Positions 17,054 to 20,740 of a stretch of 58,122 nt of DNA are shown here, piece by piece. Below the pieces are notes generated by a model. It did no database searches. It had not been told where the DNA came from and was given only the letters and a program-made list of their open reading frames with translations. The stretch is taken from contig JALHPV010000010.1 in NCBI GenBank assembly GCA_022842285.1, forward strand, positions 1 to 58,122, written 5' to 3'. Made by a program: the position numbers and the translations under genes. How positions within the stretch are numbered: position 1 is the stretch's first letter; every line of letters starts with the position of its first letter. This stretch comes from Kofleriaceae bacterium (GTDB lineage Bacteria; Myxococcota_A; Polyangia; Haliangiales; Haliangiaceae).

Positions 17054-18808
17054 CTAGGGATACCATTCGAGACCGACCGTGAATCGGTATTGCGGGTAGT
17101 AGAACGGGAAGCCGACCAGCTCGGGAATCGGGATGGCAATGTCGCCCGGCTTCACGACGAGCTTGAAGTTCGGGCCGAAGGAGAACGCGACACCGAGCGG
17201 ATTCCAGTTCGCGTAGAGCCCGATCGAGCCCTGGTCGGCCTCGACGAGATCGAACATCAGCATCGACGCGCCGAGTCCGAACGTCATCCGGAGCTCCCAG
17301 CTGCCGAACTTGCGCATCTTCCATATGCCCGGGATGTAGACCTGAACGGTGCCGGCCGTGACATCGAGCTCGGAGTACGCGACGTACGGGTTCCATTCGA
17401 CGTCGAGACCGAGCCCGAAGCAGTCGCAGGGATTCCAGCGCAGCCCGACGCTTCCGGCGGCCGCGCCCCGCTGGAACGAAGCGGAGGCGGCGGCGGCGAA
17501 GCCCCACTTCTTGGTGGTGGGATCGGGCAGCGCCTCGATGACCTTGTCCTCGCGCTCGAGGGTGCGCTCCTCGACCTTGTCGGACGTGTTCGCCTGCTCG
17601 GTGCCATCGGCGTTCGGCGCCATGTCGACGGGCGTCAGCACGGGCTTGCCCGTCGCGGGGTCGATCGGCGACGGCTCCGGGGTCGTCGGCGAGCTCTGCG
17701 CCAACGCGGGCGCGGCGAGTCCAAGCAACGCGAACGCGGTCACCAGGCCCGCCCGCTTCCGCTTCGCCTTCCGGCGGCGGCGGCGCAGGAACATCGCGCC
17801 GACCATGAGGCCGGGCACGAGCGACGCCTGCGCGCCCGCCTCGCCGGCGCCACAGCCGCACGCCGTGACCGTCAGCTCAGGCGCGTCGCAGTAGTTGTTC
17901 TCGATGGTGCACCCCGGCGTGATGACGAACGACTCGTCGATGACCGTGGCCGCGCGCGAGAGGCGGCCAGCACGACCACCCGCCGGATCCGCGATCGCCT
18001 CCACGAGGGCGGTGGCGGCCGCGGTCGAGCGGTTCTCGCGGTCCCGCGTCAGATCATCCGCTTTGCTGCAGTCGTCGACCGCCCCGATGTGGGGGTGCCC
18101 ATCGCGGGCCTCGTCGTAGTCGGCGCCGGAGAGATTGCCCTCGATCCAGTTGAGAACGTGGCGAACGTCGTCGGTCGCGCCGTCGCGCAGGATGTGGGTG
18201 TAGCCGTCCTCGAGCGCGTGCAATGCGCGTCCCACGTGGAAGTTCATCCGATTGAGTTGGAGCTTGGTGTTCTGGCGAAACTTGAGGAACACCTCGACCT
18301 CTTCGGTCGCGGCCAGGTCGATGGTGTCGGTGGGGCCGAGCGCCAGCTCGAGCTCGGCGAGGATGAAGGCCTTGCAGCGCATGAGCGCGGCCATGTCGCC
18401 GGCGGGCCCGTCGTCGGGCGCGTGGCGCAGGCAGTGCTCGTCCTGCTTGTCCGGATCGTTGTGAATGGACGCGAGGCGCGGGAGGTCGACCGGGTCGCGA
18501 TTCTCGACATCGTTGAAGCGCACGCCGATGAGGAGCGCGAGGCCCCAGCCGTTCCGCTGCTCGTCGAAGGGGAACGAGAACGGGACGTCGGAAATCGCAC
18601 GGGCCTCGGTCTCGGTCGGGGGCGGCGGCACGGCGTCGTCCGGGAACCCGGCCGATGCCACGGCGCTGGTGGTGATGCGCTCGTGGCAGTTGGTCGTGGC
18701 GAACGACTCGATCTGCCACGCGCGAGCGAGAGACGAACTAACGGTCAGCGCCGCGAGACAGCCCGCGGCAACGAGAGGCAAGCGCATGTATGTGCCAGCC
18801 CTCTGCAC
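17054..18808 (-). CDS. Exported fusion: zinc-phospholipase-C-like domain, MYXO-CTERM-like tail, then outer-membrane beta-barrel-like protein
   Basis: The single open frame has 584 residues and two halves. The first begins with a signal peptide (start at M1 or M8, cleavage near ARAWQ). NFHVGRALHALEDGYTH at about 189-205 resembles the metal-binding helix of zinc-dependent phospholipase C/S1 nuclease proteins. CGCGAGEAG, a hydrophobic stretch and RRRRRKAKRKR follow (317-352), the pattern of a MYXO-CTERM sorting tail. Where such proteins normally stop, this one goes on with a second signal-peptide-like segment (353-371, ending APALAQ), a Pro-rich linker and a beta-rich segment with alternating aromatic strands that ends in W-Y-P. 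An internal start at M340 (17791) or V356 could make the second half separately. It sits between hslU and argD. Confidence 0.7.
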   Translation of the reverse strand: MQRAGTYMRLPLVAAGCLAALTVSSSLARAWQIESFATTNCHERITTSAVASAGFPDDAVPPPPTETEARAISDVPFSFPFDEQRNGWGLALLIGVRFNDVENRDPVDLPRLASIHNDPDKQDEHCLRHAPDDGPAGDMAALMRCKAFILAELELALGPTDTIDLAATEEVEVFLKFRQNTKLQLNRMNFHVGRALHALEDGYTHILRDGATDDVRHVLNWIEGNLSGADYDEARDGHPHIGAVDDCSKADDLTRDRENRSTAAATALVEAIADPAGGRAGRLSRAATVIDESFVITPGCTIENNYCDAPELTVTACGCGAGEAGAQASLVPGLMVGAMFLRRRRRKAKRKRAGLVTAFALLGLAAPALAQSSPTTPEPSPIDPATGKPVLTPVDMAPNADGTEQANTSDKVEERTLEREDKVIEALPDPTTKKWGFAAAASASFQRGAAAGSVGLRWNPCDCFGLGLDVEWNPYVAYSELDVTAGTVQVYIPGIWKMRKFGSWELRMTFGLGASMLMFDLVEADQGSIGLYANWNPLGVAFSFGPNFKLVVKPGDIAIPIPELVGFPFYYPQYRFTVGLEWYP

Positions 18809-18848: not shown

Positions 18849-20201
18849 CTAGAGGATGTAGCGGGTCAAATCCTCGTCGGCGACGAGGCTGCCGAGGCGC
18901 TCGCGCACGTACGCCTGGGTGATCGGAATCGTCTGGGTTCCGATATCGGGGGCGTTGTAGAGCAGATCATCCAGGAGACGTTCGAGCACGGTGTGGAGCC
19001 GGCGCGCACCGATGTCGTGGGTGCGGGTGTTCACGTCCGCCGCGATCTTGGCCAGCTCCGAGATCGCATCCGCGGTCCACTCGATGGTCACCCCATCCGT
19101 CGCGAGCAGGGCGGCGTACTGGCTCGTGAGTGCGTTCTGCGGTTCGGTCAGGATCCGGACGAAGTCATCGGCGGTCAGGGGCGACAGCTCCACCCGGATC
19201 GGGAACCGACCCTGCATCTCGGGGATGAGGTCCGACGGCTTCGAGGTGTGGAAGGCGCCGGCGGCGATGAACAGCACGTGGTCCGTCTTCACCGGGCCGT
19301 ATTTGGTCGTGACGGTCGACCCTTCGACGATCGGCAGGAGGTCGCGCTGCACGCCCTCGCGGGACACATCGGCGCCCATGCGCTCGCGGTTCGTCGCGAT
19401 CTTGTCGATCTCGTCGATGAAGACGATGCCGGCGTTCTCGGCGCGGAACACGGCCTCGCGGGTAGCGGCCTCGTGGTCGATCAACTTGTCGACCTCCTGC
19501 TCCGTCAGCGCGCGCCACGCCTGCGGAACCTTCAGCTTCTGCCGCTTCGTCTTGCGGCCCATCGCACCGAACATGTCCTTCAGGCCCGAGAGGGCGTTCT
19601 CGTCGATGCCGGGCTGGCCGCCGAGCACCGACATGAGCGGGTTCGAGTCATCCGAGAGCTCGACCTCGACCTCACGGTCGTCGAGCCTGCCCTCGCGCAA
19701 CATGGTGCGGAGCTTCTCGCGTGTGGCGTCCGTACCCGACGACTGCTGCTCGTGAGCGCGGTCGGTGAACGAGCGGCCGCCGGCACGTGGCAGCAGGAGA
19801 TCGAGGAGCCGCTCCTCCGCGGACTCCTTGGCGCGCGGCCGCATCTTCTGGGCTTCCTCGTCGCGCACGAGCTTCACGGAGACCTCGACCAGATCGCGCA
19901 CGATCGAATCGACGTCGCGACCGACATAGCCGACCTCGGTGAACTTGCTCGCCTCGACCTTCAGGAACGGGGCCCGAGCGAGGCGGGCGAGGCGCCGCGC
20001 GATCTCCGTCTTTCCCACGCCCGTCGGGCCGATCATGATGATGTTCTTCGGCGAGATCTCGTCGCGCAGATGGCCTTCGACCTGCTGCCGGCGCCACCGA
20101 TTGCGCATCGCCACCGCGACCGCGCGCTTGGCGTCGCGCTGACCCACGATGTACTTGTCGAGCTCCTCGACGATCTTTCCGGGCGTCAATGACGTGCTCA
20201 T
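18849..20201 (-). CDS. hslU: ATP-dependent protease ATPase subunit HslU
   Basis: The 450-residue AAA+ unfoldase feeds substrates into HslV. It starts [21 protein letters not shown]; Walker A GPTGVGKT is at 58-65, Walker B is [10 protein letters not shown], and the C-terminus ends in the usual RYIL. The acidic/charged I-domain (about 130-230) is present. The ATG at 20201 overlaps the hslV stop by 4 nt, so both subunits are made together. Length equals the family standard (about 443 in E. coli). Confidence 0.98.
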
Positions 20202-20740
20202 GCGAGCTCCTCGATGGTGAGGTTTGCATTCGTGTAGATGCAGACCTCGGCGGCGATGGCCATCGCGGACTCGACGATGGCGCGGGCAGAGAGCTCGGTG
20301 TGGCGATACAGCGCCCGGGCGGCCGACAGGGCGTAGCTGCCCCCCGAGCCGATGGCGCACACGCCGTCGTCGGGCTCGATGACGTCGCCGGATCCCGACA
20401 GGATGAACGTGGCCTCGCTGTCGGCGACGACGAGCATCGCCTCGAGGCGACGCAGCGCGCGGTCGGTGCGCCACTCCTTCGCCAGCTCGACGGCGGCGCG
20501 CCGCAAGGGGCTGCGCTGCTCGCGGAGCTTGTCGTCGAGGCGCTCGAACAGCGCGATACCGTCGGCAGCAGAGCCGGCGAACCCGCCGATCGCCCGGCCC
20601 TCGCCCAGGCGCCGCACCTTGCGCGCGCCGCCCTTCACGACCGTGTTGCCGAGGGTCACCTGACCATCGCCGGCGACCACGACGGAACCGCCGCGGCGCA
20701 CGGACAGGATCGTCGTCGAGTGAATCTCGGGTTGCTTCAC
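20198..20740 (-). CDS. hslV: ATP-dependent protease proteolytic subunit HslV
   Basis: The 180-residue peptidase is related to proteasome beta subunits. The expected mature N-terminus [10 protein letters not shown] gives catalytic Thr9, after an eight-residue propeptide that must be removed. [11 protein letters not shown] and the later [14 protein letters not shown] are typical. It starts with GTG 13 nt after the xerC stop, giving the order xerC-hslV-hslU seen in many proteobacteria. Confidence 0.97.

What the first reader, a model, noticed from the sequence alone, without database searches (positions are those of the whole stretch)
17054..18808. MYXO-CTERM-like tail followed in frame by a second exported protein
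Residues 317-352 look like a complete C-terminal sorting tail (Cys-rich, hydrophobic, Arg cluster), which should end a protein. The frame instead runs into a second signal-peptide-like segment ending APALAQ and a barrel-like domain. Either two proteins are fused and cleaved, or an internal start (M340 or V356) makes the second from the same frame without any stop codon between. An Arg cluster serving both as the end of one sorting signal and the start of another signal peptide would be unusual.
Basis: partly seen in the sequence, partly recalled or inferred. Interest (0 to 1): 0.58.

Follow-up and report, generated by a model that had tools for sequence, protein, structure and literature searches.

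The report
Myxobacterial surface-protein and barrel polyprotein
One unbroken myxobacterial gene encodes a predicted surface enzyme with its complete sorting tail, followed directly by the export signal and body of an outer-membrane barrel, which suggests that this bacterium makes the two proteins as one chain and cuts them apart.

Summary
The 584-codon frame (17054-18808) reads: signal peptide, helical domain D1, a segment like a MYXO-CTERM tail (Cys319, hydrophobic helix, basic cluster), a second signal-peptide-like helix ending ALA|Q, a disordered linker, and an 8-stranded barrel D2. It is not a sequencing artefact: 36 distinct ORFs, window included, keep both domains in one open frame, and Cys319 is invariant in 36 of 36. 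The tail sits at NCBI's curated MYXO-CTERM threshold (18.9-20.4 bits by fragment, cut-off 20). The genome encodes a myxosortase-family protease. Related D1 and D2 genes occur separately elsewhere; one separate D1 ends in a MYXO-CTERM tail over the cut-off. Best reading: a polyprotein cut by myxosortase near Cys319 and by signal peptidase I after Ala370, one basic cluster serving both signals. Cleavage is inferred, not shown. Internal initiation is disfavoured: 7 of 35 homologues lack any start codon there. The layout recurs: 15 of 106 inspected MYXO-CTERM hits in three genomes are internal and run into a second signal peptide. One internal case, MXAN_5598, is already in print, so this is a new, recurrent variant.

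The parts
17054..18808 (-). whole open frame, 584 codons plus stop (GTG at 18806-18808; ATG at 18785-18787 is the likelier start)
   Evidence: start choice by the position of the signal peptide, by eye
18719..18787 (-). first signal peptide, residues 8-30, ending ARA before Trp31
   Evidence: sequence by eye; conserved in alignment A1
17882..18718 (-). D1, helical domain, residues 31-309, fold resembling zinc-dependent phospholipase C
   Evidence: HMM bounds; AF2 model; 1ca1 Z 9.1 over 157 residues
17843..17860 (-). MYXO-CTERM signature CGCGAG, residues 317-322; invariant Cys319 at 17852-17854
   Evidence: invariant in 36 of 36 junctions; TIGR03901 20.4 bits
17786..17821 (-). hydrophobic stretch of helix 1 (sorting helix), residues 330-341
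17753..17785 (-). basic cluster RRRRRKAKRKR, residues 342-352: proposed cytoplasmic end of the sorting signal and n-region of the second signal peptide
   Evidence: Arg columns at least 90% conserved
17699..17746 (-). second signal-peptide core, residues 355-370; proposed signal peptidase I site ALA|Q after residue 370
   Evidence: AxA-like site in 34 of 35 parsed homologues with a permissive pattern
17513..17698 (-). Pro-rich low-confidence linker, residues 371-432
   Evidence: pLDDT mostly under 60
17057..17512 (-). D2, 8-stranded barrel of the OmpA/NspA/OprF type, residues 433-584
   Evidence: pLDDT 91.8 alone; Z 15-18

Best explanation
The gene encodes a polyprotein. SHOWN: one stop-free frame, conserved in 36 distinct ORFs, holding signal peptide, D1, internal MYXO-CTERM-like tail, second signal peptide and barrel D2; a myxosortase-family protease in the same genome. 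INFERRED: SP1 sends D1 through Sec; helix 1 stops transfer, leaving the basic cluster in the cytoplasm; that cluster is at once the n-region of the second signal peptide, which re-opens export and sends D2 to the periplasm; signal peptidase I cuts after Ala370 and frees D2 to fold as an outer-membrane barrel; the tail Cys319 is lipidated and myxosortase cuts beside it, so that D1 can go to the cell surface. A two-helix hairpin of about 50 residues is left behind. The result would be a surface enzyme of phospholipase C-like fold and its barrel partner made one to one.
For: Continuous frame in 36 distinct ORFs; 36 fused rows fall in one clade (100/100) of the D1 tree. Cys319 invariant 36 of 36; conserved Cys is what MrtX cleavage needs in TraA (PMC11980579, abstract and discussion). 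TIGR03901 matched by 27 of 36 junctions at E<=1 and 7 of 36 at E<=6e-4. AxA-like site in 34 of 35 parsed, helix 2 in 34 of 35. Unfused relatives: a D1 with a terminal MYXO-CTERM at 26.9 bits, one residue before the stop (L064); D2 as a neighbouring gene. Myxosortase-family protein L104: Mrt_core 105.7 bits, cut-off 100. AF2: two helices between two confident domains; D2 an OmpA-type barrel, Z 15-18, a fold that needs export. Purifying selection in D1, junction, linker and D2 among six close sequences (dN/dS 0.23, 0.39, 0.18, 0.09). Same layout in other proteins of G000, G019 and G054, with alignments running across the junction between genera.
Against: No protein data. The window's tail is borderline by model (18.9-20.4 bits) and 9 of 36 junctions do not match TIGR03901 even at E<=1. 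L008 has Cys but a single helix, which does not fit the hairpin; an assembly fault was not excluded. L065 has Cys but fails the Cys-spacing, helix-1 and AxA tests of the script. L038, L042, L062 and L066 also have only one segment over the stricter threshold. Helix 1 in the model is short and of low confidence (pLDDT about 55-62). A barrel fold does not by itself show that D2 sits in the outer membrane. In most unfused loci D2 is upstream of D1 (7 of 8), so the fusion is not simple loss of a stop in that order.
Confidence: 0.72

Rival explanations
1. Uncut two-domain membrane protein: D1 and D2 stay joined by the two-helix hairpin in the inner membrane, or span inner and outer membrane.
For: Nothing in sequence proves cleavage; the linker is about 60 residues long and Pro-rich in many homologues.
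Against: Invariant Cys, which a mere hairpin does not need, AxA-like sites in 34 of 35, and related domains occur as free proteins.
Confidence: 0.12
2. Only the second site is used: signal peptidase frees D2 while D1 stays in the inner membrane by helix 1 (tail not recognised by myxosortase).
For: Tail is borderline by TIGR03901.
Against: Cys invariant across 36; unfused L064 has a tail over the cut-off.
Confidence: 0.08
3. Two products from one frame by internal initiation at M339 or V356, D2 being made without D1.
For: Start codons exist in the window region; a group of six close homologues shares an ATG, with somewhat lower dS at the junction (0.23 against 0.31-0.34).
Against: 7 of 35 homologues have no ATG/GTG/TTG in the region, 28 of 35 is near the 23.6 expected, SD-like stretch in 3; no stop ends the first product, so a fused chain would be made anyway.
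Confidence: 0.06
4. Artefact: a missed stop or frameshift between two ordinary genes.
For: Draft assembly in 550 contigs; GC-rich CGC repeats at the junction.
Against: Same open frame in 36 distinct ORFs, and like layouts conserved between genera in other families.
Confidence: 0.02

Closest known systems
MXAN_5598 of Myxococcus xanthus (PMC11980579, Discussion part 1 read)
   Same: Internal MYXO-CTERM between an N-terminal exported region and an outer-membrane barrel; the authors suggest fusion of two genes and propose processing of the N-part.
   Different: There the N-part is a large adhesin and the C-part carries OmpA cell-wall domains; here D1 has a phospholipase C-like fold and D2 is a bare 8-stranded barrel. 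The passage does not mention a second signal peptide. C236, C54 and C261 of this genome are nearer to MXAN_5598 in domains.
TraA/TraB of M. xanthus (same paper)
   Same: MYXO-CTERM surface protein paired with a partner whose combined architecture the paper likens to MXAN_5598.
   Different: Two overlapping ORFs, not one frame.
Bradyrhizobium FbcH (cytochrome b/c1 precursor cut by signal peptidase; recalled, no call supports it)
   Same: One bacterial precursor split at an internal signal peptide.
   Different: No C-terminal sorting tag; both products belong to one inner-membrane complex.
Zinc-dependent phospholipase C (PF00882; solved structure 1ca1)
   Same: Predicted fold Z 9.1 over 157 residues; shared H...D...H core.
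   Different: No PF00882 HMM hit to D1; activity unknown.

Membership tests
MYXO-CTERM sorting domain (TIGR03901) | signature motif with invariant Cys | tested here: met
   Cys319; 36 of 36 homologous junctions
MYXO-CTERM sorting domain (TIGR03901) | hydrophobic helix then Arg cluster | tested here: met
MYXO-CTERM sorting domain (TIGR03901) | score over curated cut-off of 20 bits | tested here: inconclusive
   20.4, 20.1 with neighbours, 18.9, not reported for the whole protein
MYXO-CTERM sorting domain (TIGR03901) | lies at the C-terminus | tested here: not met
   238 residues follow the match; so it is filed as an internal, MYXO-CTERM-like tail
MYXO-CTERM sorting domain (TIGR03901) | myxosortase in the genome | tested here: met
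   L104: Mrt_core 105.7 over cut-off 100; below the cut-offs of MrtP, MrtX and MrtC
MYXO-CTERM sorting domain (TIGR03901) | lipidation, cleavage, surface display | not testable with these tools
   needs experiment
Internal MYXO-CTERM fusion (MXAN_5598 kind) | internal tail followed by an outer-membrane-type barrel | tested here: met
Internal MYXO-CTERM fusion (MXAN_5598 kind) | adhesin N-part and OmpA cell-wall domain | tested here: not met
   no Pfam domain in the window protein at E<=0.01
OmpA-type 8-stranded barrel | eight-stranded barrel fold | tested here: met
   8 strands; Z 15-18 to NspA, OprF, OmpA, Legionella porin III
OmpA-type 8-stranded barrel | outer-membrane location | not testable with these tools
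   inferred from fold and signal peptide
Zinc-dependent phospholipase C (PF00882) | match to the family HMM | tested here: not met
   no hit; own genome has no PF00882 match; profile comparison only finds a 19-residue core
Zinc-dependent phospholipase C (PF00882) | fold | tested here: inconclusive
   1ca1 Z 9.1, rmsd 3.7, 157 aligned; helical folds can reach this by common arrangement

The most novel reading that the evidence does not exclude
Myxococcota use a general polyprotein strategy: a surface protein and its outer-membrane or lipoprotein partner are translated as one chain, with a single basic cluster acting both as the end of the first protein's sorting tag and as the start of the second's signal peptide, and two unrelated membrane proteases (myxosortase and signal peptidase I or II) cut out the helical hairpin between them. 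The D1-D2 gene is one of several unrelated families that arrived at this layout.
Probability: 0.6. Interest if true: 0.77.

Novelty: new variant of a known kind. Interest (0 to 1): 0.62.

Why it matters
Bacterial polyproteins that separate into differently sorted products are, to my knowledge, rarely described. If right, this shows that C-terminal sorting tags need not be terminal, gives a natural test of whether myxosortase can cut an internal tag, and names many surface-protein/barrel pairs that probably work together. It also means that annotation which expects MYXO-CTERM only at the end of proteins can miss such genes.

Tried and rejected
Sequencing artefact: rejected, 36 distinct fused ORFs. 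Internal initiation as general mechanism: disfavoured. Pfam and PDB sequence searches gave no family for either domain (DUF3575, DUF6603 and RuvC_III each in 1 of 28 members only). PF00882 membership of D1: HMM search and profile comparison failed. Synteny as support: hslU upstream only in G019's locus besides the window, argD not conserved next to it. Searches for bacterial polyprotein precedents found nothing to the point (listings only); Haft 2024 is not held.

Rows dropped or weak: in the tree L053 and L063 are labelled separate only because their contigs end inside D1; L018 and L028 are the same locus. L067 holds a masked stretch inside D1 and was used for D2 only. In one search, L050 was not parsed by the script; by eye it has Cys, helix, Arg cluster, helix and a RAQ-type site. 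The AxA pattern was permissive and L008's AxA hit there is not meaningful. In one search three of the four unfused tails were given in a wrong frame or place by me (L018, L064, L068); they were repeated correctly. In one search the L031 and L034 pieces were misplaced and say nothing, and the L016 piece stops short of its Arg cluster. Of 8 CPBP hits in the genome, 7 were scanned; L109 (frame of mixed content) was left out. Of 72 TIGR03901 hits in G000 at E<=10, the best 51 were inspected; 21 weaker ones were not.

Full report
WHAT IS THERE. The frame 17054-18808 lies on the minus strand and encodes 584 residues without a stop. From the likely ATG (18785-18787) it reads: a signal peptide ending ARA before Trp31; D1 (31-309); the tail CGCGAG...MFLRRRRRKAKRKR (317-352); LVTAFALLGLAAPALA|Q (355-371); a Pro-rich linker; D2 (433-584). 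The neighbours read as hslU upstream and an argD-like aminotransferase just downstream, named from recall of their sequences.

IS IT CHANCE OR ERROR. In 56 relatives searched with the protein, 19 have a match; no stop lies inside the matches except in one weak one. The genome-contig scan gave 42 loci. With HMMs made of D1 and D2, 36 distinct ORFs, window included, hold both domains in one frame; in an alignment of 28 of them the other 27 are 29-41% identical to the window protein. An alignment of the 36 junctions shows the tail Cys invariant, with the Gly before it and three Arg columns at least 90% conserved. Hydrophobic segments are concentrated in the middle. Among six close sequences, D1, junction, linker and D2 are all under purifying selection. 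A missed stop in the window cannot explain this.

IS THE TAIL A MYXO-CTERM. TIGR03901 gives 20.4 bits for a 50-residue piece, 19.5 alone or 20.1 with neighbours in the genome scan and 18.9 for a 62-residue piece, against a cut-off of 20; TIGR03382 gives 16.5 against 15.85 and 15.0 for the longer piece. Full-length scans did not report it. Of the 36 junctions, 27 match at E<=1 and 7 at E<=6e-4. So the model evidence is borderline for the window, and the conservation of the Cys is the stronger argument. The genome has 47 TIGR03901 places over the cut-off, this one among them, and a myxosortase-family protease, L104, with Mrt_core 105.7 bits over a cut-off of 100 but below the cut-offs of the named subfamilies.

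THE SECOND SIGNAL. Of 35 parsed junctions, 34 have a second hydrophobic stretch and 34 an AxA-like site by a permissive pattern. L008 is the exception with a single helix. The AF2 model of the whole protein (28 sequences, mean pLDDT 82) puts a helix at 324-338 and another at 345-356 (model numbering; add 7 for P0001), both of low to middling confidence, between confident domains.

THE TWO DOMAINS. D2 folded alone has mean pLDDT 91.8 and eight strands; the nearest solved structures are outer-membrane barrels, Legionella porin III Z 17.8, NspA 16.0, OprF 15.9, OmpA 15.6. D1 is helical; the best solved match in the whole-protein list is the phospholipase C domain of 1ca1, Z 9.1, 157 aligned, 13% identity, which for a helical fold is suggestive only. 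D1 has a conserved His/Asp pattern (invariant H35, D93, H118, H190, D194, H198, H233 in model numbering) and an aromatic residue at the proposed mature N-terminus, both recalled to be features of zinc-dependent phospholipase C; no PF00882 match was found and the profile comparison found only a 19-residue core.

SEPARATE HALVES. In L016, L017, L018, L064, L068, L069, L070 and L072 D1 and D2 are separate genes; D2 is upstream on the same strand in 7 of these 8 and on the other strand in L072. L064's D1 ends one residue after a TIGR03901 match of 26.9 bits; the tails of L018 and L068 score 9.0 and 7.0, L016 16.4 on a cut piece, L072 and L070 nothing, and L017 has no such helix. In the D1 tree the fused rows form one clade with full support (together with the two truncated rows), while L065, also fused, sits among the separate ones, so fusion may have happened twice.

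INTERNAL START. A start codon occurs in the relevant stretch in 28 of 35 junctions (23.6 expected from codon use), an ATG in 13, an SD-like stretch in 3; in 7 there is none. Six close sequences share an ATG.

A RECURRENT LAYOUT. In G000, of the 51 best TIGR03901 hits, 43 end within 10 residues of a stop, 7 (this one, C122, C34, C261, C54, C236, C18:12673) run in frame into a second signal-peptide-like segment, and 1 (C55) runs on without one. In G019, of 48 hits, 39 are terminal, 7 run into a second signal peptide, 2 run on without one; in G054, 6 of 7 are terminal and 1 runs into a lipobox-like signal; G042 had no hit at E<=0.01. Together 15 of 106, eight with AxA-like ends and seven with lipobox-like ends, judged by eye. 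C236, C54 and C261 carry OmpA domains at the end like MXAN_5598. Alignments between G000 and G019 run across the junction for C122, C34, C54 and C261 (39-48% identity). L019 of G008 shows an unfused state: a MYXO-CTERM-like tail, a TAA, then a lipoprotein-like start in the same frame.

WHAT IS KNOWN. I read the abstract, introduction and part 1 of the discussion of PMC11980579 and passages. It reports MrtX cleavage of TraA, and one internal MYXO-CTERM, MXAN_5598, thought to be a gene fusion whose N-part is processed; it does not, in the parts I read, speak of a second signal peptide or of a class. Searches for MYXO-CTERM (13 papers listed), myxosortase, MXAN_5598 and related terms were read as listings only. 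Haft 2024 could not be read.

VERDICT. A real, conserved in-frame fusion; most likely a polyprotein cut by myxosortase and signal peptidase. The genomic part is firm; both cuts are inferred. It is a new variant of a barely described kind, and in these genomes the layout is more common than the one published example suggests.

Noticed in passing
G000 C236 (L188), C54 (L187), C261 (L189): Three proteins with internal MYXO-CTERM, second signal peptide and OmpA domain, like MXAN_5598.
   Followed up: partly
G000 C122 (L186), C34 (L190), C18:12673 (L118); G019 L146, L163, L175; G054 L183: Internal MYXO-CTERM followed in frame by a lipobox-like signal, so the second product would be a lipoprotein; C122 and C34 have no Pfam match.
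   Followed up: partly
L008 1471-3138 (same gene as L052): Fused homologue with Cys but one helix only in the middle; either a deletion that changes topology or an assembly fault.
   Followed up: no
L065 4204-6096: Fused D1-D2 inside the clade of separate genes, with another D2 upstream; possible second, independent fusion.
   Followed up: partly
G000 C55:25098-25184 (L097): MYXO-CTERM hit whose frame runs on over 500 residues without a signal peptide; may be a frameshift or non-coding run-on.
   Followed up: no
window 18849-20474 and L012/L048: hslU lies directly upstream of the fused gene in the window and in one genome of another genus.
   Followed up: partly
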